Source: Eunapius fragilis
Taxonomy: Eukaryota; Porifera; Demospongiae; Spongillida; Spongillidae
Direction of reading: 5' to 3'
Assembly (NCBI GenBank): GCA_963681505.1
Contig: OY811972.1
Coordinates: 1 to 64,000 of the forward strand
DNA: 64,000 bases
Part shown: positions 1 to 64,000 of the stretch, piece by piece
Layout: every line of letters begins with the position of its first letter
Position numbering within the stretch: position 1 is the stretch's first letter
The notes under the pieces: model-generated
Told to the model about the DNA's origin: nothing
The model's input: the letters and a program-made list of their open reading frames with translations, nothing else
Databases searched by the model: none
Made by a program: the position numbers and the translations under genes

Positions 1-78
1 ATTGCATGCCTCATCAACACCTCGATGCTAAAATAGTCAATATTTCCCATAGAGATGTATGGGTGGTTTCCCATAGGA
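1..78 (+). repeat. Partial unit at the left edge
   Basis: The window opens inside a unit, at ATTGCATGCCTCATCAACACC, and runs through a 208-class junction (CAATATTTCCC with the duplicated 24-bp segment) to the first full unit start at 79. It matches bases 4841-4918 except for one base in the CCCATAG motif. The array therefore continues beyond the left edge. Confidence 0.95.
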
Positions 79-3000
79 ATGTATGGGTGGGAACCTACTT
101 TTGAATTGCTTGGGTAACCCATACCGAAGCAGGTATGCTCGTGGTGGCATTTAAAACAGACAGAGGAATGGTTACTGCTATCTTCCATGTGTGCAGTGGT
201 TTGCTCATACTGCATGTCTCATCAACACCTCGATTCTAAGATAGTCAATATTTCCCATAGAGATGTATGGATGGTTTCCCATAGGAATGTATGGGTGGGA
301 ACCTACTTTTGAATCGCTTGGTAAACCCATACCAAAGCAGGTATCCTGTGGGTGGCAATTAAAACAGATAGAGGAATGGTTACTGCTATCTTCCATGTGC
401 GCAGTGGTTTGCTCATATTGCATGCCTCATCAACACCTCGATGCTAAAATAGTCAATATTTCCCATAGAGATGTATGGGTGGTTTCCCATAGGAATGTAT
501 GGGTGGGAACCTACATTTGAATCGCTTGGTTAACCCATACCGAAGCAGGTATGCTCGGGGTGGCATTTAAAACAGATAAAGGAATGGTTACTGCTATCTT
601 CCATGTGCGCAAAAGTTTCCCATAGAAATGTATGGGTGGGAACCTACTTTTGAATCGCTTGGTTAACCCATACCAAAGCTGGTATGCTCGGGGTGGCATT
701 TAAACCAGATAAAGGAATGGTTACTGCTATCTTCCATGAGTGCAGTGGTTTGCTCTTATTGCATGTCTCGTCAACACCTCAATGCTAAGATAGTCATTAT
801 TTCCCATAGAGATGTATGGGTGGTTTCCCATAGGAATGTATGGGTGGGAACCTACTGTTGAATCGCTTGGTTAACCCATACCAAAGCAGGTATCCTCGGG
901 GTGGCATATAAAACAGATAAAGGAATGGTTACTGCTATCTTCCATGTGTGCAGTGGTTTGCTCCTATTGCATGTCTCATCAACACCTCGATGCTAAGATA
1001 GTCAAAAATTTCCCATAGAAATGTATGGGTGGGAACCTACTTTTGAATCGCTTGGTAAACCCATACCAAAGCAGGTATCCTCGGGGTGGCATTTAAAACA
1101 GATAGAGAAATGGTTACTGCTATCTTCCATGTGTGCAGTGGTTTGCTCATATTGCATGTCTCATCAACACCTCGATTCTAAGATAGTCAATATTTCCCAT
1201 AGAGATGTATGGGTGGTTTCCCATAGGAATGTATGGGTGGGAACCTACATTTGAATCGCTTGGTTAACCCATACCGAAGCAGGTATGCTCGGGGTGGCAT
1301 TTAAAACAGATAAAGGAATGGTTACTGCTATCTTCCATGTGTGCAAAAGTTTCCCATAGAAATGTATGGGTGGGAACCAACTTTTGAATCGCTTGGGTAA
1401 CCCATACCGAAGCAGGTATGCTCGTGGTGGCATTTAAAACAGATAGAGGAATGGTTACTGCTATCTTCCATGTGTGCAGTGGTTTGCTCATACTGCATGT
1501 CTCATCAACACCTCGATTCTAAGATAGTCAATATTTTCCCATAGAGATGTATGGATGGTTTCCCATAGGAATGTATGGGTGGGAACCAACTTTTGAATCG
1601 CTTGGTAAACCCATACCAAAGCAGGTATCCTGTGGGTGGCAATTAAAACAGATAGAGGAATGGTTACTGCTATCTTCCGTGTGCGCAGTGGTTTGCTCAT
1701 ATTGCATGCCTCATCAACACCTCGATGCTAAAATAGTCAATATTTCCCATAGAGATGTATGGGTGGTTTCCCATAGGAATGTATGGGTGGGAACCTACTT
1801 TTGAATCGCTTGGGTAACCCATACCGAAGCAGGTATGCTCGGCGTGGCATTTGAAACAGATAGAGGAATGGTTACTGCTATCTTCCATGTGTGCAGTGGT
1901 TTGCTCATATTGCATGTCTCATCAACACCTCGGATTCTAAGATAGTCAATATTTCCCATAGAGATGTATGGGTGGATTCCCATAGGATTGTATGGGTGGG
2001 AACCTACTTTTGAATCGCTTGGTAAACCTCATACCAAAGCAGGTATCCTCGGGGTGGCATTTAAACAGATTGAGGAATGGTTACTGCTATCATCCATGTG
2101 TGCAGTGGTTTGCTCATATTGCATGTCTCATCAACACCTCGATGCTAAGATAGTCAAAAATTTCCCATAGAAATGTATGGGTGGGAACCTACTTTTGAAT
2201 CGCTTGGGTAACCCATACCGAAGCAGGTAAGCTCGCGGTGGCATTTAAAACAGATAGAGGAATGGTTACTGCTATCTTCCATGTGCGCAGTGGTTTGCTC
2301 ATATTGCATGCCTCATCAACACCTCGATGCTAAAATAGTCAATATTTCCATAGAGATGTATGGGTGGTTTCCCATAGGAATGTATGGGTGGGAACCTACT
2401 TTTGATTCGCTTGGGTAACCCATACCGAAGCAGGTATGCTCGTGGTGGCATTTAAAACAGATAGAGGAATGGTTACTGCTATCTTCCATGTGTGCAGTGG
2501 TTTGCTCATACTGCATGTCTCATCAACACCTCGATTCTAAGATAGGTCAATATTTCCCATAGAGATGTATGGATGGTTTCCCATAGGAATGTATGGGTGG
2601 GAACCTACTTTTGAATCGCTTGGTAAACCCATACCAAAGCAGGTATCCTGTGGGTGGCAATTAAAACAGATAGAGGAATGGTTACTGCTATCTTCCATGT
2701 GCGCAGTGGTTTGCTCATATTGCATGCCTCATCAACACCTCGATGCTAAAATAGTCAATATTTCCCATAGAGATGTATGGGTGGTTTCCCATAGGAATGT
2801 ATGGGTGGGAACCTACTTTTGAATCGCTTGGGTAACCCATACCGAAGCAGGTATGCTCGGCGTGGCATTTAAAACAGACAGAGGAATGGTTACTGCTATC
2901 TTCCATGTGTGCAGTGGTTTGCTCATATTGCATGTCTCATCAACACCTCGATTCTAAGATAGTCAATATTTCCCATAGAGATGTATGGGTGGTTTCCCAT

Positions 3001-4918
3001 AGGATTGTATGGGGTGGGAACCTACTTTTGAATCGCTTGGTAAACCCATACCAAAGCAGGTATCCTCGGGGTGGCATTTAAAACAGATTGAGGAATGGTT
3101 ACTGCTATCGTCCATGTGTGCAGTGGTTTGCTCATATTGCATGTCTCATCAACACCTCGATGCTAAGATAGTCATTATTTCCCATAGAGATGTATGGGTG
3201 GTTTCCCATAGGAATGTATGGGTGGGAACCTACATTTGAATCGCTTGGTTAACCCATACCGAAGCAGGTATGCTCGGGGTGGCATTTAAAACAGATAAAG
3301 GAATGGTTACTGCTATCTTCCATGTGCGCAAAAGTTTCCCATAGAAATGTATGGGTGGGAACCTACTTTTGAATCGCTTGGTTAACCCATACCAAAGCTG
3401 GTATGCTCGGGGTGGCATTTAAACCAGATAAAGGAATGGTTACTGCTATCTTCCATGAGTGCAGTGGTTTGCTCTTATTGCATGTCTCGTCAACACCTCG
3501 ATGCTAAGATAGTCAAAAATTTCCCATAGAAATGCATGGGTGGGAACCTACTTTTGAATCGCTTGGTAAACCCATACCAAAGCTGGTATGCTCGGGGAGG
3601 CATTTAAAACAGATAGAGGAATGGTTACAGCTATCTTCCATGTGTGCAGTGGTTTACTCATATTGCATGTCTCATCAACACCTCAATGCTAAGATAGTCA
3701 ATATTTCCCATAGAGATGTATGGGTGGTTTCCCATAGGAATGTATGGGTGGGAACCTACTTTTGAGTCGCTTGGTTAACCCATACCAAAGCAGGTATCCT
3801 CGGGGTGGCATTTAAAACAGATAAAGGAATGGTTACTGCTATCTTCCATGTGTGCAGTGGTTTGCTCCTATTGCATGTCTCATCAACACCTCGATGCTAA
3901 GATAGTCAAAAATTTCCCATAGAAATGTATGGGTGGGAACCTACTTTTGAATCGCTTGGTAAGCCCATACCAAAGCAGGTATCCTCGGGGTGGCATTTAA
4001 AACAGATAGAGAAATGGTTACTGCTATCTTCCATGTGTGCAGTGGTTTGCTCATATTGCATGTCTCATCAACACCTCGATTCTAAGATAGTCAATATTTC
4101 CCATAGAGATGTATGGGTGGTTTCCCATAGGAATGTATGGGTGGGAACCTACTTTTGAGTCGCTTGGTTAACCCATACCAAAGCAGGTATCCTCGGGGTG
4201 GCATTTAAAACAGATAAAGGAATGGTTACTGCTATCTTCCATGTGTGCAGTGGTTTGCTCCTATTGCATGTCTCATCAACACCTCGATGCTAAGATAGTC
4301 AAAAATTTCCCATAGAAATGTATGGGTGGGAACCTACTTTTGAATCGCTTGGTAAGCCCATACCAAAGCAGGTATCCTCGGGGTGGCATTTAAAACAGAT
4401 AGAGAAATGGTTACTGCTACCTTCCATGTGTGCAGTGGTTTGCTCATATTGCATGTCTCATCAACACCTCGATTCTAAGATAGTCAATATTTCCCATAGA
4501 GATGTATGGGTGGTTTCCCATAGGATTGTATGGGTGGGAACCTACTTTTGAATCGCTTGGTAAACCCATACCAAAGCAGGTATCCTCGGGGTGGCATTTA
4601 AAACAGATTGAGGAATGGTTACTGCTATCATCCATGTGTGCAGTGGTTTGCTCATATTGCATGTCTCATCAACACCTCGATGCTAAGATAGTCAAAAATT
4701 TCCCATAGAAATGTATGGGTGGGAACCTTCTTTTGAATCGCTTGGGTAACCCATACCGAAGCAGGTAAGCTCGGGGTGGCATTTAAAACAGATAGAGGAA
4801 TGGTTACTGCTATCTTCCATGTGCGCAGTGGTTTGCTCATATTGCATGCCTCATCAACACCTCGATGCTAAAATAGTCAATATTTCACATAGAGATGTAT
4901 GGGTGGTTTCCCATAGGA
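79..4918. repeat. Domain 1 HOR block, copy 1 (25 units, 4840 bp)
   Basis: There are 25 units in the order 208, 208, 133, 208, 185, 208, 133, 208, 208, 208, 185, then five 208s, 133, 185, 208, 185, 208, 185, 208, 185, 208 (idealised lengths). The next block restarts at 4919 with the same unit order and variants. The copy at 8346-13182 has the same 25 units in 4837 bp. The length difference comes from seven single-base indels confined to about 1.53-3.02 kb of this copy. Confidence 0.9.
3532..4710. repeat. Three 393-bp dimers (208+185) in block 1
   Basis: Unit starts at 3532, 3740, 3925, 4133, 4318 and 4526 alternate 208 and 185 bp. The second and third dimers share GAGTCGCTTGGTTAACCC or GGTAAGCCCATACC variants. 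The same run is at 11796-12974 with three dimers and at 7352-8137 with only two, so copy number of the dimer differs between HOR blocks. Confidence 0.88.
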
Positions 4919-5334
4919 ATGTATGGGTGGGAACCTACTTTTGAATTGCTTGGGTAACCCATACCGAAGCAGGTATGCTCGTGGTGGCATTTAAAACAGA
5001 CAGAGGAATGGTTACTGCTATCTTCCATGTGTGCAGTGGTTTGCTCATACTGCATGTCTCATCAACACCTCGATTCTAAGATAGTCAATATTTCCCATTG
5101 AGATGTATGGATGGTTTCCCATAGGAATGTATGGGTGGGAACCTACTTTTGAATCGCTTGGTAAACCCATACCAAAGCAGGTATCCTGTGGGTGGCAATT
5201 AAAACAGATAGAGGAATGGTTACTGCTATCTTCCATGTGCGCAGTGGTTTGCTCATATTGCATGCCTCATCAACACCTCGATGCTAAAATAGTCAATATT
5301 TCCCATAGAGATGTATGGGTGGTTTCCCATAGGA

Positions 5335-5467
5335 ATGTATGGGTGGGAACCTACATTTGAATCGCTTGGTTAACCCATACCGAAGCAGGTATGCTCGGGG
5401 TGGCATTTAAAACAGATAAAGGAATGGTTACTGCTATCTTCCATGTGCGCAAAAGTTTCCCATAGAA
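5335..5467 (+). repeat. Representative 133-bp unit with a 52-bp internal deletion
   Basis: The unit runs normally to CCATGTGCGCA and then jumps to AAAGTTTCCCATAGAAATG (junction about 5450-5452). Relative to a 185-bp unit exactly 52 bp are missing, from the base after the CA of GTGCA to the CA of ATAGTCA. A two-base CA is therefore shared at both ends of the deletion. All copies also carry a G in what would otherwise be an A-tract (AAAAG). The other 133-bp units start at 495, 1229, 3214, 6069, 7034, 8762, 9496, 11478, 13599, 14541 and 15275. Confidence 0.92.
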
Positions 5468-6617
5468 ATGTATGGGTGGGAACCTACTTTTGAATCGCTT
5501 GGTTAACCCATACCAAAGCTGGTATGCTCGGGGTGGCATTTAAACCAGATAAAGGAATGGTTACTGCTATCTTCCATGAGTGCAGTGGTTTGCTCTTATT
5601 GCATGTCTCGTCAACACCTCAATGCTAAGATAGTCATTATTTCCCATAGAGATGTATGGGTGGTTTCCCATAGGAATGTATGGGTGGGAACCTACTGTTG
5701 AATCGCTTGGTTAACCCATACCAAAGCAGGTATCCTCGGGGTGGCATATAAAACAGATAAAGGAATGGTTACTGCTATCTTCCATGTGTGCAGTGGTTTG
5801 CTCCTATTGCATGTCTCATCAACACCTCGATGCTAAGATAGTCAAAAATTTCCCATAGAAATGTATGGGTGGGAACCTACTTTTGAATCGCTTGGTAAAC
5901 CCATACCAAAGCAGGTATCCTCGGGGTGGCATTTAAAACAGATAGAGAAATGGTTACTGCTATCTTCCATGTGTGCAGTGGTTTGCTCATATTGCATGTC
6001 TCATCAACACCTCGATTCTAAGATAGTCAATATTTCCCATAGAGATGTATGGGTGGTTTCCCATAGGAATGTATGGGTGGGAACCTACATTTGAATCGCT
6101 TGGTTAACCCATACCGAAGCAGGTATGCTCGGGGTGGCATTTAAAACAGATAAAGGAATGGTTACTGCTATCTTCCATGTGTGCAAAAGTTTCCCATAGA
6201 AATGTATGGGTGGGAACCAACTTTTGAATCGCTTGGGTAACCCATACCGAAGCAGGTATGCTCGTGGTGGCATTTAAAACAGATAGAGGAATGGTTACTG
6301 CTATCTTCCATGTGTGCAGTGGTTTGCTCATACTGCATGTCTCATCAACACCTCGATTCTAAGATAGTCAATATTTCCCATAGAGATGTATGGATGGTTT
6401 CCCATAGGAATGTATGGGTGGGAACCAACTTTTGAATCGCTTGGTAAACCCATACCAAAGCAGGTATCCTGTGGGTGGCAATTAAAACAGATAGAGGAAT
6501 GGTTACTGCTATCTTCCGTGTGCGCAGTGGTTTGCTCATATTGCATGCCTCATCAACACCTCGATGCTAAAATAGTCAATATTTCCCATAGAGATGTATG
6601 GGTGGTTTCCCATAGGA

Positions 6618-6825
6618 ATGTATGGGTGGGAACCTACTTTTGAATCGCTTGGGTAACCCATACCGAAGCAGGTATGCTCGGCGTGGCATTTAAAACAGAC
6701 AGAGGAATGGTTACTGCTATCTTCCATGTGTGCAGTGGTTTGCTCATATTGCATGTCTCATCAACACCTCGATTCTAAGATAGTCAATATTTCCCATAGA
6801 GATGTATGGGTGGTTTCCCATAGGA
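6618..6825 (+). repeat. Representative 208-bp unit
   Basis: This long unit equals a 185-bp unit plus 24 bp minus 1 bp. The 24-bp segment beginning TTTCCCATAGAG occurs at 6790-6813 and again, slightly changed, at 6814-6837, so the duplication straddles the unit junction. The tract before it reads CAATATTT instead of CAAAAATTT. In nearly every long unit the shorter tract and the duplication occur together, so the class probably had one origin. The two 24-bp copies each contain the CCCATA...TATGGG dyad, giving two potential hairpins in a row. Confidence 0.92.
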
Positions 6826-8137: not shown

Positions 8138-8345
8138 ATGTATGGGTGGGAACCTTCTTTTGAATCGCTTGGGTAACCCATACCGAAGCAGATAAGCTCG
8201 GGGTGGCATTTAAAACAGATAGAGGAATGGTTACTGCTATCTTCCATGTGCGCAGTGGTTTGCTCATATTGCATGCCTCATCAACACCTCGATGCTAAAA
8301 TAGTCAATATTTCCCATAGAGATGTATGGGTGGTTTCCCATAGGA

Positions 8346-20300: not shown

Positions 20301-22085
20301 GGTGGCATTTAAAACAGATAGAGGAATGGTTACTGCTATCTTCCATGTGTGCAGTGGTTTGCTCATATTGCATGTCTTATCAACACCTCGATGCTAAAAT
20401 AGTCAAAAATTTCCCATAGAAATGTATGGGTGGGAACCTACTTTTGAATCGATTGGTAAACCCATACCAAAGCAGGTATCCTCGGGGTGGCATTAAAAAG
20501 AGATAGAGGAGTGGTTACTGCTATCTTCCATGTGTGCAGTGGTTTGCTCATATTGCATGCCTCATCAACACCTCGATGCTAAGATAGTCAAAAATCTCCC
20601 ATAGAAATGTATGGGTGGGAACCTACTTTTGAATTGCTTGGTAAACCCATACCAAAGCAGGTATCCTCGGGGTGGCATTCAAAACAGATAGAGGAGTGGT
20701 TTCTGCTATCTTCCATGTGTGCAGTGGTTTGCTCATATTGCATGCCTCATCAACACCTCGATGCTAAGATAGTCAATATTTCCCATTGAGATGTATGGGT
20801 GGTTTCCCATAGGAATGTATGGGTGGGAACCTACTTTTGAATCGCTTGGGTAACCCATACCGAAGCAGGAATGCTCGGGGTGGCATTTAAAACAGATAGA
20901 GGAATGGTTACTGCTATTTTCCATGTGTGCAGTGGTTTGCTCATATTGCATGTCTCATCAACACCTCGATGCTAAGATAGTCAAAAATTTCCCATAGAAA
21001 TGTATGGGTGGGAACCTACTTTTGAATCGCTTGGTAAACCCATACCAAAGCAGGCATCCTCGGGGTGGCATTTAAAACAGATAGAGGAATGGTTACTGCT
21101 ATCTTCCATGTGTGCTGTGGTTTGCTCATATTGCATGTCTCATCAACACCTCGATGCTAAGATAGTCAAAAATTTCCCATAGAAATGTATGGGTGGGAAC
21201 CTACTTTTGAATCGCTTGGTAAACCAATACCAAAGAAGGTATCCTCGGGGTGGCATTTAAAACAGATAGAGGAATGGTTACTGCTATCTTCAATGTGTGC
21301 AGTGGTTTGCTCATATTGCATGTCTCATCAAATCCTCGATGCTAAGATAGTCAAAAATCTCCCATAGAAATGTATGGGTGGGAACCTACTTTTGAATCGC
21401 TTGGTAAACCCATACCAAAGCAGGCATCCTCGGGGTGGCATTTAAAACAGATAGAGGAATGGTTACTGCTATCTTCCATGTGTGCAGTGGTTTGCTCATA
21501 TTGCATGTCTCATCAACACCTCGATGCTAAATAGTCAAAAATTTCCCATAGAAATGTATGGGTGGGAACCTACTTTTGAATCGCTTGGTAAACCCATACC
21601 AAAGCAGGTATCCTCGGGGTGGCATTTAAAACAGATAGAGGAATGGTTACTGCTATCTTCCATGTGTGCAGTGGTTTGCTCATATCGCATGTCTCATCAA
21701 CAGCTCGATGCTAAGATAGTCAAAAATTTCCCATAGAAATGTATGGGTGGGAACCTACTTTTGAATCGCTTGGTAAACCCATACCAAAGTAGGTATCCTC
21801 GGGGTGGCATTACAAAGAGATAGAGGAGTGGTTACTGCTATCTTCCATGTGTCCAGTGGTTTGCTCATATTGCATGCCTCATCAACACCTCGATGCTAAG
21901 ATAGTCAATATTTCCCATTGAGATGTATGGGTGGTTTCCCATAGGAATGTATGGGTGGGAACCTACTTTTGAATCGCTTGGGTAACCCATACCGAAGCAG
22001 GAATGCTCGGGGTGGCATTTAAAACAGATAGAGGAATGGTTACTGCTATCTTCCATGTGTGCAGTGGTTTGCTCATATTGCATGT
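17313..22085. repeat. Duplicated 1.36-kb segments at 3420-bp offset
   Basis: Bases of about 17313-18665 reappear at about 20733-22085. The shared run includes a unit with CAGGCATCCTCGG, the rare AAACCAATACCAAAGAAGG unit (17765 and 21185), a one-base-short unit with GATGCTAAATAGTC (18134 and 21554 junctions) and CATCAACAGCTCG. Between the copies lie 185-bp and 208-bp units with CATTAAAAAGAGATAG and CATGCCTGATCAAC variants. The edges are set by eye and could shift by a unit. Confidence 0.82.
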
Positions 22086-27100: not shown

Positions 27101-27678
27101 ATGTATGGGTGGGAACCTACTTTTGAATGGTTTGGTAAACCCATACCAAAGCAGGTATCCTCGGGGTGGCATTAAAAAGAGATAGAGGAGTGGTTACTGC
27201 TATCTTCCATGTGTGCAGTGGTTTGCTCATATTGCATGCCTCATCAACACCTCGATGCTAAGATAGTCAATATTTCCCATAGAGATGTATGGGTGGTTTC
27301 CCATAGGAATGCATGGGTGGGAACCTACTTTTGAATCGCTTGGGTAACCCATACCGAAGCAGGTATGCTCGGGGTGGCATTTAAAACAGATAGAGGAATG
27401 GTTACTGCTATCTTCCATGTGTGCAGTGGTTTGCTCATATTGCATGTCTTATCAACACCTCGATGCTAAAATAGTCAAAAATTTCCCATAGAAATGTATG
27501 GGTGGGAACCTACTTTTGAATCGATTGGTAAACCCATACCAAAGCAGGTATCCTCGGGGTGGCATTAAAAAGAGATAGAGGAGTGGTTACTGCTATCTTC
27601 CATGTGTGCAGTGGTTTGCTCATATTGCATGCCTCATCAACACCTCGATGCTAAGATAGTCAAAAATCTCCCATAGAA

Positions 27679-30360
27679 ATGTATGGGTGGGAACCTACTT
27701 TTGAATTGCTTGGTAAACCCATACCAAAGCAGGTATCCTCGGGGTGGCATTCAAAACAGATAGAGGAGTGGTTTCTGCTATCTTCCATGTGTGCAGTGGT
27801 TTGCTCATATTGCATGCCTCATCAACACCTCGATGCTAAGATAGTCAATATTTCCCATAGAGATGTATGGGTGGTTTCCCATAGGAATGTTTGGGTGGGA
27901 ACCTACTTTTGAATCGCTTGGGTAACCCATACCGAAGCAGGTATGCTCGGGGTGGCATTTAAAACAGATAGAGGAATGGTTACTGCTATCTTCCATGTGT
28001 GCAGTGGTTTGCTCATATTGCATGTCTCATCAACACCTCGATGCTAAGATAGTCAAAAATCTCCCATAGAAATGTATGGGTGGAAACCTACTTTTGAATT
28101 GCTTGGTAAACCCATACCAAAGCAGGTATCCTCGGGGTGGCATTTAAAACAGATAGAGGAATGGTTACGGCTATCTTCCATGTGTGCAGTGGTTTGCTCA
28201 TATTGCATGCCTCATCAACACCTCGATGCTCAGATAGTCTATATTTCCCATAGAGATGTATGGGTGGTTTCCCATTGGAATGTATGGGTGGGAACCTACT
28301 TTTGAATCGCTTGGGTAACCCATACCGAAGCAGATATGCTCGGGGTGGCATTTAAAACAAATAGAGGAATGGTTACTGCTATCTTCCATGTGTGCAGTGG
28401 TTTGCTCATATTGCATGTCTCATCAACACCTCGATGCTAAGATAGTCAAAAATTTCCCATAGAAATGTATGGGTGGGAACCTACTTTTGAATCGCTTGGT
28501 AAACCCATACCAAAGCTGGTATCCTCAGGGTGGCATTTAAAACAGATAGAGGAATGGTTACTGCCATCTTCCATGTGTGCAGTTGTTTGCTCATACTGCA
28601 TGTCTCATCAACACCTCGATGCTAAGATAGTCAAAAATTTCCCATAGAAATGTATGGGTGGGAATCTACTTTTGAATCGCTTGGGTAACCCATACCGAAG
28701 CAGGTATGCTCGGGGTGGCATTTAAAACAGATAGAGGAATGGTTACTGCTATCTTCCATGTGTGCAGTGGTTTGCTCATATTGCATGTCTTATCAACACC
28801 TCGATGCTAAAATAGTCAAAAATTTCCCATAGAAATGTATGGGTGGGAACCTACTTTTGAATCGATTGGTAATCCCATACCAAAGCAGGTATCCTCGGGG
28901 TGGCATTAAAAAGAGATAGAGGAGTGGTTACTGCTATCTTCCATGTGTGCAGTGGTTTGCTCATATTGCATGCCTCATCAACACCTCGATGCTAAGATAG
29001 TCAAAAATCTCCCATAGAAATGTATGGGTGGGAACCTACTTTTGAATTGCTTGGTAAACCCATACCAAAGCAGGTATCCTCGGGGTGGCATTCAAAACAG
29101 ATAGAGGAGTGGTTTCTGCTATCTTCCATGTGTGCAGTGGTTTGCTCATATTGCATGCCTCATCAACACCTCGATGCTAAGATAGTCAATATTTCCCATA
29201 GAGATGTATGGGTGGTTTCCCATAGGAATGTTTGGGTGGGAACCTACTTTTGAATCGCTTGGGTAACCCATACCGAAGCAGGTATGCTCGGGGTGGCATT
29301 TAAAACAGATAGAGGAATGGTTACTGCTATCTTCCATGTGTGCAGTGGTTTGCTCATATTGCATGTCTCATCAACACCTCGATGCTAAGATAGTCAAAAA
29401 TCTCCCATAGAAATGTATGGGTGGAAACCTACTTTTGAATTGCTTGGTAAACCCATACCAAAGCAGGTATCCTCGGGGTGGCATTTAAAACAGATAGAGG
29501 AATGGTTACGGCTATCTTCCATGTGTGCAGTGGTTTGCTCATATTGCATGCCTCATCAACACCTCGATGCTCAGATAGTCTATATTTCCCATAGAGATGT
29601 ATGGGTGGTTTCCCATTGGAATGTATGGGTGGGAACCTACTTTTGAATCGCTTGGGTAACCCATACCGAAGCAGATATGCTCGGGGTGGCATTTAAAACA
29701 AATAGAGGAATGGTTACTGCTATCTTCCATGTGTGCAGTAGTTTGCTCATATTGCATGTCTCATCAACACCTCGATGCTAAGATAGTCAAAAATTTCCCA
29801 TAGAAATGTATGGGTGGGAACCTACTTTTGAATCGCTTGGTAAACCCATACCAAAGCTGGTATCCTCAGGGTGGCATTTAAAACAGATAGAGGAATGGTT
29901 ACTGCCATCTTCCATGTGTGCAGTTGTTTGCTCATACTGCATGTCTCATCAACACCTCGATGCTAAGATAGTCAAAAATTTCCCATAGAAATGTATGGGT
30001 GGGAATCTACTTTTGAATCGCTTGGGTAACCCATACCGAAGCAGGTATGCTCGGGGTGGCATTTAAAACAGATAGAGGAATGGTTACTGCTATCTTCCAT
30101 GTGTGCAGTGGTTTGCTCATATTGCATGTCTCATAAACACCTCGATGCTAAGATAGTCAAAAATTTCCCATAGAAATGTATGGGTGGGAACCTACTTTTG
30201 AATCGCTTGGGTAACCCATACCGAAGCAGGTATGCTCGGGGTGGCATTTAAAACAGATAGAGGAATGGTTACTGCTATCTTCCATGTGTCCAGTGGTTTG
30301 CTCATATTGCATGTCTCATCAACACCTCGATGCTAAGATAGTCAAAAAATTCAGATAGAA
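27679..30360. repeat. Two 1341-bp heptamers (first location)
   Basis: Copies at 27679-29019 and 29020-30360 have units 208, 185, 208, 185, 185, 185, 185. Private markers are CATTCAAAACAG with GGTTTCTGC in unit 1, GATGCTCAGATAGTC in unit 3, GCAGATATGC in unit 4, CAAAGCTGGTATCCTCAGGG in unit 5 and GGGAATCTAC in unit 6. The copies diverge in the sixth unit, where CTTATCAACACC in the first is replaced by CTCATAAACACC in the second. Confidence 0.88.
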
Positions 30361-31123
30361 ATGTATGGGCGGGAACCTACTTTTGAATCGCTTGGGTAAC
30401 CCATACCGAAGCAGGTATGCTCGGGGTGGCATTTAAAACAGATAGAGGAATGGTTACTGCTATCTTCCATGTGTGCAGTGGTTTGCTCATATTGCATGCC
30501 TCATCAACACCTCGATGCTAAGATAGTCTATATTTCCCATAGAGATGTATGGGTGGTTTCCCATAGGAATGTATGGGTGGGAACCTACTTTTGAATCGCT
30601 TGGGTAACCCATACCGAAGCAGGTAAGCTTGGGGTGGCATTTAAAACAGATAGAGGAATGGTTACTGCTATCTTCCATGTGTGCAGTGGTTTGCTCATAT
30701 TGCATGTCTCATCAACACCTCGATGCTAAGATAGTCAAAAATTTCCCATAGAAATGTATGGGTGGGAACCTACTTTTGAATAGCTTGATAAACCCATACC
30801 AAAGCTGGTATCCTCGGGGTGGCATTTAAAACAGATAGAGGAATGGTTACTGCCATCTTCCATGTGTGCAGTTGTTTGCTGATATTGCATGTTTCATCAA
30901 CACCTCGATGCTAAGATAGTCAAAAATTTCCCATAGAAATGTATGGGTGGGAACCTACTTTTGAATCGCTTGGGTAACCAATACCGAAGCAGGTATGCTC
31001 GGGGTGGCATTTAAAACAGATAGAGGAATGGTTACTGCTATCTTCCATGTGTGCAGTGGTTTGCTCATATTGCATGTCTCATCAACACCTCGATGCTAAG
31101 ATAGTAAAAAATTTCCCATGGAA

Positions 31124-32302
31124 ATGTATGGGTGGGAACCTACTTTTGAATCGCTTGGGTAACCCATACCGAAGCAGGTATGCTCGGGGTGGCATTTAAA
31201 ACAGATAGAGGAATGGTTACTGCTATCTTCCATGTGTGCAGTGGTTTGCTCATATTGCATGTCTCATCAACACCTCGATTCTAAGATAGTCAATATTACC
31301 CAAAGAGATGTATGGGTGGTTTCCCATAGGAATGTATGGGTGGGAACCTACTTTTGAATCGCTTGGTAAACCCATACCAAAGCAGGTATCCTCCAGGTGG
31401 CATTTAACACAAATAGAGGAATGGTTACTGCTATCATCCATCTGTGCAGTGGTTTGCTCATATTGTTTGTCTCATCAACACCTCGATGCTAAAATAGTGA
31501 AAAATTTCCCATAGAAATGTATGGGTGGGAACCTACTTTTGAATCGCTTGGTAAACCCATACCAAAGCAGGTATCCTCGGGGTGGCATTAAAAAGAGATA
31601 GAGGAGTGGTTACAGCTATCTTCCATGTGTCCAGTGGTTTGCTCATATTGCATGCCTCATCAACACCTCGATGCTAAGATAGTCAATATTTCCCATTGAG
31701 ATGTATGGGTGGTTTCCCATAGGAATGTATGGGTGGGAACCTACTTTTGAATCGCTTGGGAAACCCATACCGAAGCAGGTATGCTCGGGGTGGCATTTAA
31801 AACAGATAGAGGAATGGTTACTGCTATCTTCCATGAGTGCAGTGGTTTGCTCATATTGCATGTCTCATCAACACCTCGATGCTAAGATAGTCAAAAATTT
31901 CCAATAGAAATGTATGGGTGGGAACCTACTTTTAAATCGCTTGGTAAACCCATACCAAAGCAGGTATCCTCGGGGTGGCATTAAAAAGAGATAGAGGAGT
32001 GGTTTCTGCTATCTTCCATATGTGCAGTGGTTTGCTCATATTGCATACCTCATCAACACCTCGATGCTAAGATAGTCAATATTTCCCATAGAGATGTATG
32101 GGTGGTTTCCCATAGGAATGTTTGGGTGGGAACCTACTTTTGAATCGCTTGGGTAACCCATACCGAAGCAGGTATGCTCGGGGTGGCATTTAAAACAGAT
32201 AGAGGAATGGTTACTGCTATCTTCCATGTGTGCAGTGGTTTGCTCATATTGCATGTCTCATCAACACCTCGATGCTAAGATAGTCAAAAATTTCCCATAG
32301 AA
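31124..32302. repeat. Three 393-bp dimers within the 6-kb segment
   Basis: Unit starts are 31124, 31332, 31517, 31725, 31910 and 32118. The three dimers differ from each other by many variants (TTACCCAAAGAG, CCCATTGAG, TTTCCAATAG), so this is an older dimer run than the one at 22895. Its duplicate is at 37667-38845. Confidence 0.84.
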
Positions 32303-32487
32303 ATGTATGGGTGGGAACCTACTTTTGAATCGCTTGGTAAACCCATACCGAAGCAGGTATGCTCGGGGTGGCATTTAAAACAGATAGAGGAATGGTTACT
32401 GCTATCTTCCATGTGTGCAGTGGTTTGCTCATATTGCATGTCTTATCAACACCTCGATGCTAAGATAGTCAAAAATTTCCCATAGAA
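32303..32487 (+). repeat. Representative 185-bp unit
   Basis: This is a near-consensus short unit, given as a reference for the 185-bp class. It contains GTATGGGT at unit positions 3-10 and its inverse ACCCATAC at 39-46. It also has a DraI-type TTTAAA near position 73 and a TCGA near position 152, and ends CAAAAATTTCCCATAGAA. The junction with the next unit forms a dyad, CCCATA, six bases, then TATGGG. The forward frame starting at its ATG stays open for 60 codons and ends at the TAG inside CCCATAG. Because 185 is not a multiple of three, that frame does not continue into the next unit. Confidence 0.93.
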
Positions 32488-32496
32488 ATGTATGGG
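32479..32496. other. Dyad symmetry at the unit junction (representative)
   Basis: CCCATA (32479-32484), six bases, then TATGGG (32491-32496) form an inverted repeat that can fold as a short hairpin. It is present at nearly every unit junction and twice at each 208-class junction. A second, wider pair is GTATGGGT (32305-32312) with ACCCATAC (32341-32348). The stretch between also contains a third dyad in many units: TTGGTA-6 bases-TACCAA, GGGTAACCC or GGTTAACC depending on subtype. Whether any of these forms in cells is inference. Confidence 0.75.
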
Positions 32497-34221
32497 TGGG
32501 AACCTACTTTTGAATGGTTTGGTAAACCCATACCAAAGCAGGTATCCTCGGGGTGGCATTAAAAAGAGATAGAGGAGTAGTTACTGCTATCTTCCATGTG
32601 TGCAGTGGTTTACTCATATTGCATGCCTCATCAACACCTCGATGCCAATATAGTCAATATTTCCCATAGAGATGTATGGGTGGTTTCCCATAGGAATGCA
32701 TGGGTGGGAACCTACTTTTGAATCGCTTGGGTAACCCATACCGAAGCAGGTATGCTCGGCGTGGCATTTAAAACAGATAGAGAAATGGTTACTGCTATCA
32801 TCCATGTGTGCAGTGGTTTGCTCATATTGCATGTCTTATCAACACCTCGATGCTAAAATAGTCAAAAATTTCCCATAGAAATGTATGGGTGGGAACCTAC
32901 TTTTGAATCGATTGGTAAACCCATACCAAAGCAGGTATCCTCGGGGTGGCATTAAAAAGAGATGGAGGAGTGGTTACTGCTATCTTCCATGTGTGCAGTG
33001 GTTTGCTCGTATTGCATGCCTCATCAACACCTCGATGCTAAGATAGTCAAAAATCTCCCATAGAAATGTATGGGTGGGAACCTACTTTTGAATTGCTTGG
33101 TAAACCCATACCAAAGCAGGTATCCTCGGGGTGGCAATTAAAACAGATAGAGGAGTGGTTTCTGCTATCTTCCATGTGTGCAGTGGTTTCCTCATATTGC
33201 ATGCCTCATCAACACCTCGATGCTAAGATAGTCAATATTTCCCATAGAGATGTATGGGTGGTTTCCCATAGGAATGCATGGGTGGGAACCTACTTTTGAA
33301 TCGCTTGGGTAACCCATACCGAAGCAGGTATGCTCGGGGTGGCATTTAAAACAGATAGAGGAATGGTTACTGCTATCTTCCATGTGTGCAGTGGTTTGCT
33401 CATATTGCATGTCTTATCAACACCTCGATGCTAAAATAGTCAAAAATTTCCCATAGAAATGTATGGGTGGGAACCTACTTTTGAATCGATTGGTAAACCC
33501 ATACCAAAGCAGGTATCCTCGGGGTGGCATTAAAAAGAGATAGAGGAGTGGTTACTGCTATCTTCCATGTGTGCAGTGGTTTGCTCATATTGCATGCCTC
33601 ATCAACACCTCGATGCTAAGATAGTCAAAAATCTCCCATAGAAATGTATGGGTGGGAACCTACTTTTGAATTGCTTGGTAAACCCATACCAAAGCAGGTA
33701 TCCTCGGGGTGGCATTCAAAACAGATAGAGGAGTGGTTTCTGCTATCTTCCATGTGTGCAGTGGTTTGCTCATATTGCATGCCTCATCAACACCTCGATG
33801 CTAAGATAGTCAATATTTCCCATAGAGATGTATGGGTGGTTTCCCATAGGAATGCATGGGTGGGAACCTACTTTTGAATCGCTTGGGTAACCCATACCGA
33901 AGCAGGTATGCTCGGGGTGGCATTTAAAACAGATAGAGGAATGGTTACTGCTATCTTCCATGTGTGCAGTGGTTTGCTCATATTGCATGTCTTATCAACA
34001 CCTCGATGCTAAAATAGTCAAAAATTTCCCATAGAAATGTATGGGTGGGAACCTACTTTTGAATCGATTGGTAAACCCATACCAAAGCAGGTATCCTCGG
34101 GGTGGCATTAAAAAGAGATAGAGGAGTGGTTACTGCTATCTTCCATGTGTGCAGTGGTTTGCTCATATTGCATGCCTCATCAACACCTCGATGCTAAGAT
34201 AGTCAAAAATCTCCCATAGAA
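32488..34221. repeat. Three 578-bp trimers (208+185+185)
   Basis: Trimers start at 32488, 33066 and 33644. The last two share GAATTGCTTGG, GGTTTCTGC, GAATGCATGGG and GAATCGATTGG in the same unit positions. One extra trimer here explains why the 6-kb duplication has an offset of 6543 bp while its shared length is only about 6.04 kb. Confidence 0.85.
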
Positions 34222-57300: not shown

Positions 57301-58090
57301 ATAGAGGAGTGGTTACTGCTATCTTCCATGTGTGCAGTGGTTTGCTCATATTGCATGTCTCATCAACACCTCGATGCTAAGATAGTCAATATTTCCCATA
57401 GAGATGTATGGGTGGTTTCCCATAGGAATGAATCGGTGGGAACCTCCTTTTGAATCGCTTGGTTAACCCATACCGAACCAGGTATGCTCGGGGTGGCATT
57501 TAAAACAGATAGAGGAGTGGTTACTGCTATCTTCCATGTGTGCAGTGGTTTGCTCATATTGCATGTCTCATCAACACCTCGATGCTAAGATAGTTAATAT
57601 TTCCCTTAGAGATGTATGGGTGGTTTCCCATAGGAATGTATGGGTGGGAACCTACTTTTGAATCGCTTGGTTAACCCATACCGAAGCAGGTATGCTCGGG
57701 GTGGCATTTAAAATAGATAGAGGAGTGGTTACTGCTATCTTCCATGTGTGCAGTGGTTTGCTCATATTGCATGTCTCATCAACACCTCGATGCTAAGATA
57801 GTCAATATTTCCCATTGAGATGTATGGGTGGTTTCCCATAGGAATGTATGGGTGGGAACCTACTTTTGAATCGCTTGGTTAACCCATACCGAAGCAGGTA
57901 TGCTCGGGGTGGCATTTAAAATAGATAGAGGAGTGGTTACTGCTATCTTCCATGTGTGCAGTGGTTTGCTCATATTGCATGTCTCATCAACACCTCGATG
58001 CTAAGATAGTCAAAAATTATCCCATAGAAATGTATGGGTGGAAGATAGTCAATATTTCCCATAGAGATGTATGGGTGGTTTCCCATAGGA
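56435..58090. repeat. 1656-bp nine-unit HOR, copy 1
   Basis: The units are 185, 208, 184, 208, 208, 208, 208, 186 and 61. Private markers are GCAGAAATACTCGG, TCCCAAAGGAATG, GGTAGCATTTTAAAC, GAATGAATCGG, GAACCTCCTTTTG, GATAGTTAATATTTCCC and the 61-bp remnant. Confidence 0.86.
58030..58090 (+). repeat. 61-bp remnant unit (copy 2)
   Basis: The breakpoint is the same as in the unit at 55585 (GGGTGG joined to AAGATAG). The preceding junction reads AAAAATTATCCC, a variant shared only with the third copy. It belongs to the 1656-bp duplication. Confidence 0.9.
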
Positions 58091-59746
58091 ATGTATGGGT
58101 GGGAACCTACTTTTGAATCGCTTGGTTAACCCATACCGTAGCTGGTATGCTCGGGGTGGCATTTAAAACAGATAGAGGAGTGGTTACTTCTATCTTCCAT
58201 GTGTGCAGTGGTTTGCTCATATTGCATGTCTCATCAACACCTCGATGCAAAGATAGTCAAAAATTTCCCATAGAAATGTATGGGTGGGAACCTACTTTTG
58301 AATCGCTTGGTAAACCCATACCAAAGCAGAAATACTCGGGGTGGCATTCAAAGGAGATAGAGGAGTGGTTGCTGCTATCTTCCATGTGTGCAGTGGTTTA
58401 CTCATATTGCATGTCTCATCAACACCTCGATGCTAAGATAGTCAATATTTCCCTTAGAGATGTATGGGTGGTTTCCCATAGGAATGTATCGGTGGGAACC
58501 TACTTTTGAATCGCTTGGTTAACCCATACCGAACCAGGTATGCTCGAATGGCATTTAAAACAGATAGAGGAGTGGTTACTGCTATCTTCCATGTGTGCAG
58601 TGGTTTGCTCATATTGCATGTCTCATCAACACCTCGATGCTAAGATAGTCAAAAATTTCCCATAGAAATGTATCGGTGGGAACCTACTTTTGAATCGCTT
58701 GGTAAACCCATACCAAAGCACGTATGCTCGGGGTGGCATTTAAAACAGATAGAGGAGTGGTTACTGCTATCTTTCATGTGTGCAGTGGTTTGCTCACATT
58801 GCATGTCTCATCAACACCTCGATGCTAAGATAGTCAATATTACCCATAGAGATGTATGGGTGGTTTCCCAAAGGAATGTATCGGTGGGAACCTACTTTTG
58901 AATCGCTTGGTTAACCCATACCGAAGCAGGTATGCTCGGGGTAGCATTTTAAACAGATAGAGGAGTGGTTACTGCTATCTTCCATGTGTGCAGTGGTTTG
59001 CTCATATTGCATGTCTCATCAACACCTCGATGCTAAGATAGTCAATATTTCCCATAGAGATGTATGGGTGGTTTCCCATAGGAATGAATCGGTGGGAACC
59101 TCCTTTTGAATCGCTTGGTTAACCCATACCGAACCAGGTATGCTCGGGGTGGCATTTAAAACAGATAGAGGAGTGGTTACTGCTATCTTCCATGTGTGCA
59201 GTGGTTTGCTCATATTGCATGTCTCATCAACACCTCGATGCTAAGATAGTTAATATTTCCCTTAGAGATGTATGGGTGGTTTCCCATAGGAATGTATGGG
59301 TGGGAACCTACTTTTGAATCGCTTGGTTAACCCATACCGAAGCAGGTATGCTCGGGGTGGCATTTAAAATAGATAGAGGAGTGGTTACTGCTATCTTCCA
59401 TGTGTGCAGTGGTTTGCTCATATTGCATGTCTCATCAACACCTCGATGCTAAGATAGTCAATATTTCCCATTGAGATGTATGGGTGGTTTCCCATAGGAA
59501 TGTATGGGTGGGAACCTACTTTTGAATCGCTTGGTTAACCCATACCGAAGCAGGTATGCTCGGGGTGGCATTTAAAATAGATAGAGGAGTGGTTACTGCT
59601 ATCTTCCATGTGTGCAGTGGTTTGCTCATATTGCATGTCTCATCAACACCTCGATGCTAAGATAGTCAAAAATTATCCCATAGAAATGTATGGGTGGAAG
59701 ATAGTCAATATTTCCCATAGAGATGTATGGGTGGTTTCCCATAGGA
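58091..59746. repeat. 1656-bp nine-unit HOR, copy 2
   Basis: This copy has the same nine lengths and markers as 56435-58090. The first unit differs (GTATGGGTGGG with TTACTTCTATC) and resembles the unit at 59747 that follows, so the true exchange point lies inside that unit and not at its start. Confidence 0.86.
59686..59746 (+). repeat. 61-bp remnant unit (copy 3)
   Basis: The breakpoint and the preceding TTATCCC variant match the copy at 58030, exactly 1656 bp upstream. It was therefore copied as part of the larger block and did not arise independently. Confidence 0.9.
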
Positions 59747-62665
59747 ATGTATGGGTGGGAACCTACTTTTGAATCGCTTGGTTAACCCATACCGTAGCTG
59801 GTATGCTCGGGGTGGCATTTAAAACAGATAGAGGAGTGGTTACTTCTATCTTCCATGTGTGCAGTGGTTTGCTCATATTGCATGTCTCATCAACACCTCG
59901 ATGCTAAGATAGTCAAAAATTTCCCATTATAAAATGTATGGGTGGGTACCTACTTTTGAATCGCATGGTAAACCCATACCAAAGCAGGTATGCTCGGGGT
60001 GGCATTAAAACGAGATAGAGGAGTGGTTACTGCTATCTTCCATGTGTGCAGTGGTTTGCTCATATTGCATGTCTCATCAACACCTCGATGCTAAGATAGT
60101 CAATATTTCCCTTAGAGATGTATGGGTGGTTTCCCATAGGAATGTATCGGTGGGAACCTACTTTTGAATCGCTTGGTTAACCCATACCGCAGCAGGTATG
60201 CTCGGTGTGGCATTTAAAACAGATAGAGGAGTGGTTACTGCTATCTTCCATGTGTGCAGTGGTTTGCTCATATTGCATGTCTCATCAACACCTCGATGCT
60301 AAGATAGTCAAAAATTTCCCATAGAAATGTAAGGGTGGGAACCTACTTTTGAATCGCTTGGTAAACCCATACCAAAGCTGGTATGCTAGGGGTGGCATTT
60401 AAAACAGATAGAGGAGTGGTTACTGCTATCTTCCATGTGTGCAGTGGTTTACTCATATTGCATGTCTCATCAACACCTCGATGCTAAGATAGTCAAAAAT
60501 TTCCCATAGAAATGTATGGGTGGGAACCTACTTTTGAATCGCTTAGTAAACCCATACCAAAGCACGTATGCTCGGGGTGGCATTTAAAACAGATAGAGGA
60601 GTGGTTACTGCTATCTTTCATGTGTGCAGTGGTTTGCTCACATTGCATGTCTCATCAACACCTCGATGCTAAGATAGTCAATATTGCCCATAGAGATGTA
60701 TGGGTGGTTTCCCATAGGAATGTATCGGTGGGAACCTACTTTTGAATCGCTTGGTTAACCCATACCGAAGCAGGTATGCTCGGGGTGGCATTTAAAACAG
60801 ATAGAGGATTGGTCACTGCTATCTTCCATGTGTGCAGTGGTTTGCTCATATTGCATGTCTCATCAACACCTCGATGCTAAGATAGTCAAAAATTTTCCCA
60901 TAGAAATCTATGGGTGGGAACCTACTTTTGAATCGCTTGGTAAACCCATACCAAAGCAGGTATGCTCGGGGTGGCATTAAAAGGAGATAGAGGAGTGGTT
61001 ACTGCTATCTTCCATGTGTGCAGTGGTTTGCTCATGTTGCATGTCTCATCAACACCTCGATGCTAAGATAGTCAATATTTCCCATAGAGATGTATGGATG
61101 GTTTCCCATAGGAATGTATCGGTGGGAACCTACTTTTGAATCGCTTGGTTAACCCATACCGTAGCTGGAATGCTCGGGGTGGCATTTAAAACAGATAGAG
61201 GAGTGGTTACTGCTATCTTCCATGTGTGCAGTGGTTTGCTCATATTGCATGTCTCATCAACACCTCGATGCTAAGATAGTCAAAAATTTTCCATTATAAA
61301 ATGTATTGGTGGGAACCTACTTTTGAATCGCTTGGTAAAACCATACCAAAGCACGTATGCTCGGGGTGGCATTTAAAACAGATAGAGGAGTGGTTCCTGC
61401 TATCTTTCATGTGTGCAGTGGTTTGCTCACATTGCATGTCTCATCAACACCTCGATGCTAAGATAGTCAATATTTCCCATAGAGATGTATGGGTGGTTTC
61501 CCATAGGAATGTATCGGTGGGAACCTACTTTTGAATCGCTTGGTTAACCCATACCGAAGCAGGTATGCTCGGGGTGGCATTTAAAACAGATACAGGAGTG
61601 GTTACTGCTATCTTCCAAGAGTGCAGTGGTTTGCTCATTTTGCATGTCTAATCAACACCTCGATGCTAAGGTAGTCAATACTACCCATAGAGATGTATGG
61701 GTGGTTTCTTATAGGAATGTATGGGTGGGAACCTACTTTTGAATCGCTTGGTTAACCCATACCGAAGCAGGTATGCTCGGGGTGGCAATTATAACAGTTG
61801 GAGGAGTGGTTTCTGCTATCTTCCAAGAGTTCAGTGGTTTGCTCATATTGCAAGTCTCATCAACACCTCGTTGCTAAGATAGTCAAAAATTTCCCATAGA
61901 AATGTATGGGTGGGAACCTACTTTTGAATCGCTTGGTAAACCCATACCAAAGCAGCAATGCTCGGGGTGGCATTTAAAGGAGATAGAGGAGTGGTTACTG
62001 CTATCTTCCATGTGTGCAGTGGTTTACTCATATTGCATGTCTCATCAACACCTCGATGCTAAGATAGTCAATATTTCCCTTAGAGATGTATGGGTGGTTT
62101 CACACAGGAATGTATGGGTGGGAACCTACTTTTGAATCGCTTGGTTAACCCATACCGAAGCAGGTATGCTCGGGGTGGCATTTAAAACAGATAGAGGAAT
62201 GGTTACTGCTATCTTCCAAATGTGCAGTGGTTTGCTCATATTGCATGTCTCATCAACACCTCGATGCTAAGATAGACAAAAATTTTCCCATAGAAATGTA
62301 TGGGTGGGAACCTACTTTTGAATCGCTTGGTAAACCCATACCAAAGCTTGTATGCTCGGGGTGGTATTAAAAACAGATAGAGGAGTGGTTACTGCTATCT
62401 TCCAAGTGTGCAGTTGTTTGCTCATATTGCATGTCTCATCAACACCTCGATGCTAAGATAGTCAAAAATTTCCCATAGAAATGTATGCGTGGGAACCTAC
62501 TTTTGAATCGCTTGGTAAACCCATACCAAAGCTGGTATGCTAGGGGTGGCATTTAAAACAGATAGAGGAGTGGTTACTGCTATCTTTTATGTGTGCAGTG
62601 GTTTACAAATATTGCATGTCTCATCAACACCTCGATGCTAAGATAGTCAAAAATTTCCCATAGAA

Positions 62666-63843
62666 ATGTATGGGTGGGAACCTACTTTTGAATCGCTTGG
62701 TAAACCCATACCAAAGCAGGTATGCTCGGGGTGGCATTATAAGGAGATAGAGGAGTGGTTACCGCTATCTTCCATGTGTGCAGTGGTTTGCTCATATTGC
62801 ATGTCTCATCAACACCTCGATGCTAAGATAGTCAATATTTCCCTTAGAGATGTATGGGTGGTTTCCCATAGGAATGTATGGGTGGGAACCTACTTTTGAA
62901 TCGCTTGATTAACCCGTACCGAAGCAGGTATGCTCGGGGTGGCATTTAAAACAGATAGAGGAGTGGTTACTGCTATCTTCCATGTGTGCAGTGGTTTGCT
63001 CATATTGCATGTCTCATCAACACCTCGATGCTAAGATAGTCAAAAATTTCCCATAGAAATGTATGGGTGGGAACCTACTTTTGAATCACTTGGTAAACCC
63101 ATACCAAAGCAGGTATGCTCGGGGTGGCATTAAAAGGAGATAGAGGAGTGGTTACTGCTATCTTTTATGTGTGCAGTGGTTTACTCATATTGCATGTCTG
63201 ATCAACACCTAGATGCTAAGATAGTCAAAAATTTCCCATAGAAATGTATGGGTGGGAACCTACTTTTGAATCGCTTGGTAAACCCATACCAAAGCAGGTA
63301 TGCTCGGGGTGGCATTAAAAGGAGATAGAGGAGTGGTTACCGCTATCTTCCATGTGTGCAGTGGTTTGCTCATATTGCATGTCTCATCAACACCTCGATG
63401 CTAAGATAGTCAATATTTCCCTTAGAGATGTATGGGTGGTTTCCCATAGGAATGTATGGGTGGGAACCTACTTTTGAATCGCTTGTTAACCCATACCGAA
63501 GCAGGTATGCTCGGGGTGGCATTTAAAACAGATAGAGGAGTGGTTACTGCTATCTTCCATGTGTGCAGTGGTTTGCTCATATTGCATGTCTCATCAACAC
63601 CTCGATGCTAAGATAGTCAAAAATTTCCCATAGAAATGTATGGGTGGGAACCTACTTTTGAATCGCTTGGTAAACCCATACCAAAGCAGGTATGCTCGGG
63701 GTGGCATTAAAAGGAGATAGAGGAGTGGTTACTGCTATCTTCCATGTGTGCAGTGGTTTGCTCATATTGCATGTCTCATCAACACCTCGATGCTAAGAGA
63801 GTCAATATTTCCCTTAGAGATGTTGGGTGGTTTCCCATAGGAA
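62666..63843. repeat. Weak trimer periodicity at the right end
   Basis: Units of 208, 185 and 185 from 62666 are followed by 208, 184 and 207 from 63244. Starts at 62666, 63244 and about 63822 are 578 bp apart. CATTATAAGGAG or CATTAAAAGGAG and TCCCTTAGAG recur in step. The similarity is modest, with unit-specific changes such as CTTGTTAACCC and GATGTTGGGTGG. Confidence 0.65.
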
Positions 63844-64000
63844 TGTATGGGTGGGAACCTACTTTTAAATCGCTTGGTTAACCCATACCGAAGCAGGTAT
63901 GCTCGGGGTGGCATTTAAAACAGATAGAGTAATGGTTACTGCTATCTTCCAAGTGTGCAGTGGTTTGCTCATATTGCATGTCTCATCAACACCTCGATGC
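63843..64000 (+). repeat. Partial unit at the right edge
   Basis: The last unit starts at 63843 and is cut at CACCTCGATGC by the end of the window. It is of normal type with CTTTTAAATCG and GATAGAGTAATGG changes. The satellite continues past the right edge. Confidence 0.95.

What the first reader, a model, noticed from the sequence alone, without database searches (positions are those of the whole stretch)
1..64000. Unrecognised satellite family of 333 full units with four length classes
The complete span resolves into consecutive head-to-tail units with no gap, inversion, transposon or gene. Units of 185, 208, 133 and 61 bp are linked by three definable events. I do not recognise the consensus as a named satellite, so this may be an undescribed family; its repeat length and purity fit a centromeric or heterochromatic array.
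Basis: partly seen in the sequence, partly recalled or inferred. Interest (0 to 1): 0.72.

Follow-up and report, generated by a model that had tools for sequence, protein, structure and literature searches.

The report
Sponge satellite DNA near chromosome ends
This stretch of a freshwater sponge chromosome is one long run of a repeated 185- or 208-letter DNA unit that, across the genome, sits mainly near chromosome ends rather than at centromeres, and that carries a short motif kept almost unchanged in a distant sister repeat.

Summary
The window is the left end of chromosome 2 (OY811972.1) of the freshwater sponge Eunapius fragilis; the array runs to base 133,076, then inverts and decays.

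The interpretation changes. The family is genome-wide (10,294 exact hits of one 25-mer, roughly 14,000 units, ~2.7 Mb) and subterminal. Of 26 array blocks located, 20 lie within 0.5 Mb of a scaffold end (10.5% of the genome). Five chromosomes carry it on both arms. At C8 the order is telomere, 706-bp end repeat, interstitial CCCTAA, satellite. Best reading: a subtelomeric satellite.

A sister family with the same 185-bp period (consensus 64-71% identical) shares a 27-bp motif, TCCCATAGAAATGTATGGGNGGGAACC, almost unchanged in 15 consensuses: a candidate protein-binding box. Constraint is not proven, since 90 of 387 185-bp units lack the exact 18-bp core and within arrays the box is only moderately conserved. 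My paper searches (open-licence library) turned up no description.

The parts
1..64000 (+). Uninterrupted array of the satellite (part of an array running to chromosome base 133,076)
3..210 (+). Example of a 208-bp unit (two boxes)
   Evidence: (used as starting reference)
824..1008 (+). Example of a 185-bp period (one box)
   Evidence: TRF row 824-1216, period 185
482..614 (+). Example of a 133-bp period (deletion class)
   Evidence: TRF row 482-738, period 133; 12 such intervals
43..90 (+). The 24-bp tandem duplication that distinguishes 208 from 185: two copies of the box
   Evidence: TRF 24 bp x 2.0; jump 50->75
1..1536 (+). Segment repeated 8,267 bp further on, 100% identical in three 500-bp tests (recent duplication inside the array)
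3011..5647 (+). Segment repeated 8,264 bp further on (98-100% identical in 500-bp tests)
27196..33276 (+). Region with exact 300-mers repeated at 6,543 bp

Best explanation
It is a subtelomeric satellite family of the freshwater sponge Eunapius fragilis. Shown: a 185-bp unit (208 when a 24-bp box is present twice) in arrays, at C2 at least 133 kb long, lying mostly within 0.5 Mb of scaffold ends; at C8 it lies inside a distal 706-bp telomere-associated repeat and abuts an interstitial CCCTAA tract; array segments of kb size are duplicated almost exactly. Inferred: arrays grow and are homogenised by unequal exchange or amplification, and are copied between non-homologous ends by end-to-end recombination, which would explain the near-identical consensus on four chromosomes and the bias of orientation. 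Inferred and weaker: a 27-bp box with a near-palindromic core, shared with a diverged sister satellite of the same period, binds a protein that packages or spaces subtelomeric chromatin, in the way the CENP-B box serves alpha satellite.
For: 20 of 26 blocks lie within 0.5 Mb of a scaffold end, against 10.5% of the genome (binomial p about 3e-15); they touch 21 of 46 ends and 16 of 23 chromosomes, 5 of them on both arms. Order at C8: CCCTAA, 706-bp repeat, other sequence, then five CCCTAA units running into the satellite at ~20,785. At C18 the satellite stops 27 kb from the scaffold end, which is TTAGGG. A tag of the 706-bp repeat hits 45 times: 43 lie within 10 kb of ten scaffold ends, all with outward-consistent strand, which supports these being real chromosome ends; 7 of those 10 ends also have a satellite block. 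Satellite consensuses from C2 and from 1 kb each of C14, C15 and C17 are almost the same. Of 81,516 distinct 300-mers in the 133-kb array, 27,396 recur exactly. Box: main versus 14 sister consensuses agree 0.958 over the 27 box columns against 0.647 over all; the box window and three starting 1-3 bases later are the top 4 of 185.
Against: Six of 26 blocks lie further in than 0.5 Mb: C2 15.87 Mb, C4 (0.51), both C9 blocks, C11 and C19. Orientation is a bias, not a rule: 19 of 26 blocks, p = 0.03 two-sided, blocks not independent. Only 7 of 46 scaffold ends show a telomere tract in the last kb, so distances are to assembly ends, and the assembly has 802 gaps. The block list is a lower bound from exact patterns whose listings were partly truncated; no block was found on C1, C5, C6, C12, C20, C21 or C23, and on C1 only 3 stray hits of the 25-mer exist. 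No expression, chromatin or cytogenetic data. Box: within arrays it ranks only 36 of 185 windows (main) and 43 of 185 (sister), between the 14 sister consensuses 19 of 185, and in a first count with 26-column windows 28 of 208, 85 of 208 and 48 of 185.
Confidence: 0.8

Rival explanations
1. Centromeric satellite of near-terminal (telocentric or acrocentric) centromeres, as in mouse, where satellite lies at one chromosome end.
For: The 185-208 bp unit is nucleosome-sized (general knowledge); the C2 array exceeds 100 kb and holds many kb-scale duplications; a conserved box exists. A review passage notes that mouse centromeric satellite lies at or near one end (PMC8122249).
Against: Both arms carry blocks on C2, C8, C10, C14 and C22; only 3 stray hits on the largest chromosome C1; no CENP-B box core in the window or the sister consensus.
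Confidence: 0.12
2. Transposon-derived repeat: units or dimers inserted as a mobile element and then amplified in tandem.
For: Two isolated islands on C1, one of 343 bp (almost two units) and one of 179 bp.
Against: The edges of the two islands and of two arrays fall at different unit positions (first columns 76, 129, 112 and 48), and no target-site duplication was seen by eye at the two islands; the longest open frame in the window is no longer than in shuffles.
Confidence: 0.04
3. Assembly artefact: the run of units is inflated or misplaced at scaffold ends because repeats that could not be anchored were put there.
For: 802 gaps and 212 misjoins or missing joins corrected in curation; four of 46 scaffold ends stop inside the satellite; some blocks are far from ends, and C9 holds an end-type 706-bp repeat at 2.03 Mb near a run of N.
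Against: On C8 (bases 1-25,000 read, no N in 1,001-25,000) and on C18 (6,236,001-6,254,000 not read) telomere tract, end repeats and satellite lie on one scaffold; no N in the 133-kb array; HiFi reads, QV 60.4.
Confidence: 0.06

Closest known systems
Subtelomeric / telomere-associated satellites (review PMC8122249, passages seen)
   Same: Tandem units without a long frame in the outer part of chromosomes on many ends; at C8 a boundary marked by telomere-type repeats, as the review says of human subtelomeres.
   Different: Unit sequence unlike any named satellite that I recall (no repeat library searched); no sponge case turned up in the paper searches named.
Alpha satellite with CENP-B box
   Same: Nucleosome-sized unit, multi-unit duplications within arrays, and one short motif kept while the rest of the unit diverges between families.
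   Different: No CENP-B box core (motif recalled); blocks are mostly subterminal and on both arms of 5 chromosomes; no single higher-order repeat, but duplications at many offsets.
Mouse centromeric satellites at telocentric ends
   Same: Long satellite near a chromosome end.
   Different: Here both ends of 5 chromosomes carry it.

Membership tests
Satellite DNA | Head-to-tail tandem units with high identity, no long frame | tested here: met
   64,000 of 64,000 bases, 96.4% to consensus; no frame beyond shuffles
Subtelomeric satellite | Arrays concentrated near chromosome ends | tested here: met
   20 of 26 blocks within 0.5 Mb of a scaffold end
Subtelomeric satellite | Near telomere or telomere-associated repeats | tested here: met
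   C8 and C18 read directly; 7 of the 10 ends with the 706-bp repeat also have a block (C8L, C10L, C13L, C14L, C16R, C19R, C22R)
Subtelomeric satellite | Present on most or all ends | tested here: inconclusive
   21 of 46 ends, a lower bound with truncated listings
Centromeric satellite | One major array per chromosome at the primary constriction | tested here: not met
   Blocks on both arms of 5 of 16 chromosomes with blocks; only 3 stray hits on C1; positions of the constrictions are unknown
Centromeric satellite | CENP-A / CENP-C occupancy | not testable with these tools
   no chromatin data
CENP-B box satellites | TTCGNNNNANNCGGG core | tested here: not met
   0 matches on either strand of the window and of the sister consensus (motif recalled)
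Transposable element | Fixed ends | tested here: not met
   different first columns at two islands and two array edges; target-site duplications looked for by eye only

The most novel reading that the evidence does not exclude
A dedicated satellite-binding protein of freshwater sponges recognises the box CCCATAGAAATGTATGGG-N-GGGAACC, with its near-palindromic core, in two diverged 185-bp satellite families and sets the chromatin of the outer parts of the chromosomes. The satellites turn over fast while the box and the 185-bp spacing are kept, a subtelomeric counterpart of the CENP-B box, in one of the earliest-branching animal phyla.
Probability: 0.3. Interest if true: 0.65.

Novelty: new member of a known kind. 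Interest (0 to 1): 0.42.

Why it matters
My searches turned up little on chromosome ends and centromeres of sponges. This gives a probe sequence, a map of subterminal arrays, an end-specific 706-bp repeat, and a testable binding-site candidate in an early-branching animal. If the box binds a protein, one could ask whether CENP-B-like control of satellites is old in animals or arose repeatedly.

Tried and rejected
Rfam on the first 10 kb at E up to 5: nothing. First 2,000 bases against the plasmid collection, distant blastn: no match. One 21-mer against viral and bacterial/archaeal genome contigs: 0 hits, not surprising for sponge DNA; the tool warns that near records may be left out. A single higher-order repeat: rejected, since exact 300-mers recur at many offsets (8,533, 5,518, 6,543, 2,729, 8,264 bp and others). 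Coding origin: rejected. CENP-B box: absent. Transposon with fixed ends: not supported. Spongilla lacustris as source: rejected, since its note gives 248.7 Mb and a 28.04-kb mitochondrial genome (abstract seen). A strict claim that every unit keeps an intact box: rejected, because 90 of 387 185-bp units lack the exact 18-bp core, and 87 of 387 185-bp and 42 of 269 208-bp units lack it even with A or G allowed at two sites. A claim that the box is the most constant part within arrays: rejected.

Full report
What the window is. The window is the first 64,000 bases of contig C2 (17,636,043 bp) of an assembly of 218,937,333 bp in 24 contigs. Contig C24 (28,504 bp) carries COX1 read with TGA as W. 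The total, the count of 23 chromosomes plus mitochondrial genome, and the mitochondrial length fit the freshwater sponge Eunapius fragilis, odEunFrag1.1 (PMC12616128; abstract, first of five parts of the text, and passages with Tables 2 and 3 seen). Of 23 chromosome lengths, 22 agree with Table 3 to 0.01 Mb and one (C5, 11.683 against 11.69) differs in the last digit. C2 is then chromosome 2, OY811972.1. The window starts at the scaffold end, with satellite and no telomere tract there.

Check of the observation. A cyclic alignment that allows jumps placed every base of the window in one consensus (0 background bases, 96.4% identity). Intervals between one always-used column: 178 of ~185 bp, 137 of ~208, 12 of 133, 3 of 247 (330 complete intervals). 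The 208-bp unit has two tandem copies of a 24-bp box, the 185-bp unit one (plus one A), the 133-bp unit skips 75 consensus columns but keeps a box, and the extra 61 goes with a short back-jump. No N, no reverse anchors. The array goes on to base 133,076 (95.9% identity over the whole), then a minus-strand piece follows to 134,640 at about 80% identity, with a period of 196 bp. The inner edge thus looks decayed, as expected where homogenisation stops (inference).

How it evolves. In the 133-kb array 27,396 of 81,516 distinct 300-mers recur exactly, at many offsets (8,533; 5,518; 6,543; 2,729; 8,264 bp and others). This is what repeated unequal exchange or amplification of multi-unit blocks would leave (inference), not one fixed higher-order repeat. 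Consensuses from C2 and from 1 kb each of C14, C15 and C17 differ at few sites, so sequence seems to move between chromosomes (inference).

Genome-wide place. A 25-letter pattern found in 502 of 687 units of the C2 array hits 10,294 times (4,839 forward, 5,455 reverse; reversed control 0), i.e. roughly 14,000 units or 2.7 Mb, 1.2% of the assembly, if the C2 rate holds elsewhere. On C1, the largest chromosome, there are 3 hits. Positions were collected (listing truncated; end scan; 141 hits, first 100 listed; 47 hits, all listed), (147 hits, first 100 listed). I merged them by hand into 26 blocks; the 3 stray C1 hits were left out, one + hit inside the C4 block was merged into it, and C9 was counted as two. 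20 of 26 lie within 0.5 Mb of a scaffold end (10.5% of the genome, p about 3e-15), 13 of 26 within 0.25 Mb, 22 of 26 within 0.8 Mb; 21 of 46 ends and 16 of 23 chromosomes have one, 5 chromosomes on both arms. Units read + near left ends and - near right ends in 19 of 26 blocks (p = 0.03, two-sided) and in 16 of 21 outermost blocks (p = 0.027): a bias of the kind that end-to-end exchange would give, with clear exceptions.

Architecture of an end. The first and last kb of all 46 scaffold ends were looked at (window start; results): 7 of 46 carry telomere tracts (C8L, C13L, C13R, C4R, C5R, C7R, C18R) and 4 of 46 lie inside the satellite (C2L, C17L, C14R, C15R). At C8L the order is CCCTAA (to about base 2,165, interrupted), a 706-bp tandem repeat, other sequence, then five CCCTAA units (to base 20,789) that run straight into the satellite (alignment from 20,781). 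At C18R the satellite stops at 6,235,804; further out, in the part that I read, lie a 229-bp and a 110-bp repeat and then TTAGGG to the end (6,236,001-6,254,000 not read). A tag of the 706-bp repeat hits 45 times: 43 within 10 kb of ten scaffold ends, all outward-consistent in strand, and 2 at C9 2.03 Mb. A review passage (PMC8122249) describes human subtelomeres as proximal and distal domains separated by degenerate TTAGGG; C8L looks alike.

A sister family and a kept box. Inward of the C2 array, past a stretch with retrotransposon frames, lies a second satellite of 185 bp period (141,826-149,641, with a break at 144,909-145,988). Its consensus aligns with the main unit in the same phase (125 of 193 columns identical, score 126 against 9.7 +/- 10.8 for 200 mononucleotide shuffles, maximum 43). 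Related arrays occur at C3, C7, C11, C13, C19, C20 and C22 within about 1.5 Mb of an end (best candidates only) and at C2 15.65 Mb, 2.0 Mb from an end. The outer 1.5 Mb make up about a third of this genome, so this alone is a weak enrichment. Consensuses from 13 further stretches (13 of 13 fetched gave one) plus the C2 sister were compared with the main unit: identity to the main unit 0.64-0.71; agreement 0.958 over the 27 columns TCCCATAGAAATGTATGGGNGGGAACC against 0.647 over all columns; the box window and the three that start 1-3 bases later are the top 4 of 185. Fourteen of 18 positions of the core are self-complementary, which would suit a dimeric binder (inference). Against over-reading: the 14 sister consensuses share descent, so this is close to one comparison. 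Within arrays the box window ranks 36 of 185 (main, 1.4% variable against 3.1% mean) and 43 of 185 (sister, 5.6% against 7.4%); between the 14 sister consensuses it ranks 19 of 185; its 18-bp core is exact in 77% of 185-bp units against a mean of 60% for 18-mers, rank 46 of 185. A first count with 26-column windows gave ranks 28 of 208, 85 of 208 and 48 of 185. The most constant windows in both families start within a few bases of one another and overlap the second half of the box. 90 of 387 185-bp units lack the exact core.

Interpretation. Best reading: subtelomeric satellite, amplified within arrays and exchanged between ends, with a candidate protein-binding box. Shown: unit structure, subterminal clustering of the blocks located, neighbourhood with telomere-type and end repeats at C8 and C18, recent duplications, a box shared by two families. 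Inferred: exchange between ends, heterochromatin, protein binding. Centromere at near-terminal sites is not excluded, since no chromatin data exist, but blocks on both arms of 5 chromosomes and only stray copies on C1 speak against it.

Literature. My searches turned up no description of satellite DNA of this or another freshwater sponge: 'satellite DNA/sponge/Porifera/centromere' (57 papers with 3 of the 4 terms, listing of 25 seen), 'Ephydatia muelleri/telomere/tandem repeat' (0 papers), 'Eunapius fragilis/satellite' (only the genome note, where the word stands in a reference title), 'Demospongiae/satellite DNA' (0 papers), 'sponge/subtelomeric/Spongillida' (listing of 10 of 230 seen). In the Ephydatia muelleri genome paper the only centromere passage says that one chromosome is probably split at the centromere (PMC7385117, passages seen). 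The library holds open-licence papers only.

Noticed in passing
C8 1-~8,000 (L072), and ends of C3, C6, C10, C13, C14, C16, C19 (both), C22: A 706-bp tandem repeat found almost only at scaffold ends (43 of 45 tag hits within 10 kb of an end), a useful end marker for this sponge.
   Followed up: partly
C9 2,032,503-2,034,713 (L096): End-type 706-bp repeat in right-end orientation, a short TTAGGG tract and a block that I recognised by eye from beside the C8 satellite, in a chromosome interior near a run of N: a misjoin or an old chromosome fusion.
   Followed up: partly
C2 134,628-137,053 (L016 628-3053): Minisatellite of ~32 bp built on the palindrome GACTCCTGCAGGAGTC just inside the array.
   Followed up: no
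C2 137,560-141,495 (L016, minus) and 154,807-158,128 (L018, plus): LTR-retrotransposon frames near the inner edge: reverse transcriptase and integrase C-terminal part in one, integrase zinc-binding and core domains and a zinc knuckle in the other (Pfam).
   Followed up: partly
C18 6,259,889-6,261,086 and 6,257,791-6,258,719 (L076): 110-bp repeat directly inside the telomere of C18, and a 229-bp repeat further in.
   Followed up: no
C9 9,625,139-9,675,257 (L020, L021): Two COX1-like regions with many stops in a nuclear contig, perhaps mitochondrial insertions.
   Followed up: no
C1 14,437,135-14,437,477 (L070) and C1 23,506,476-23,506,654 (L071): Isolated islands of 343 and 179 bp of the satellite far from ends, with different edges; the second stretch also holds 200 N.
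   Followed up: partly
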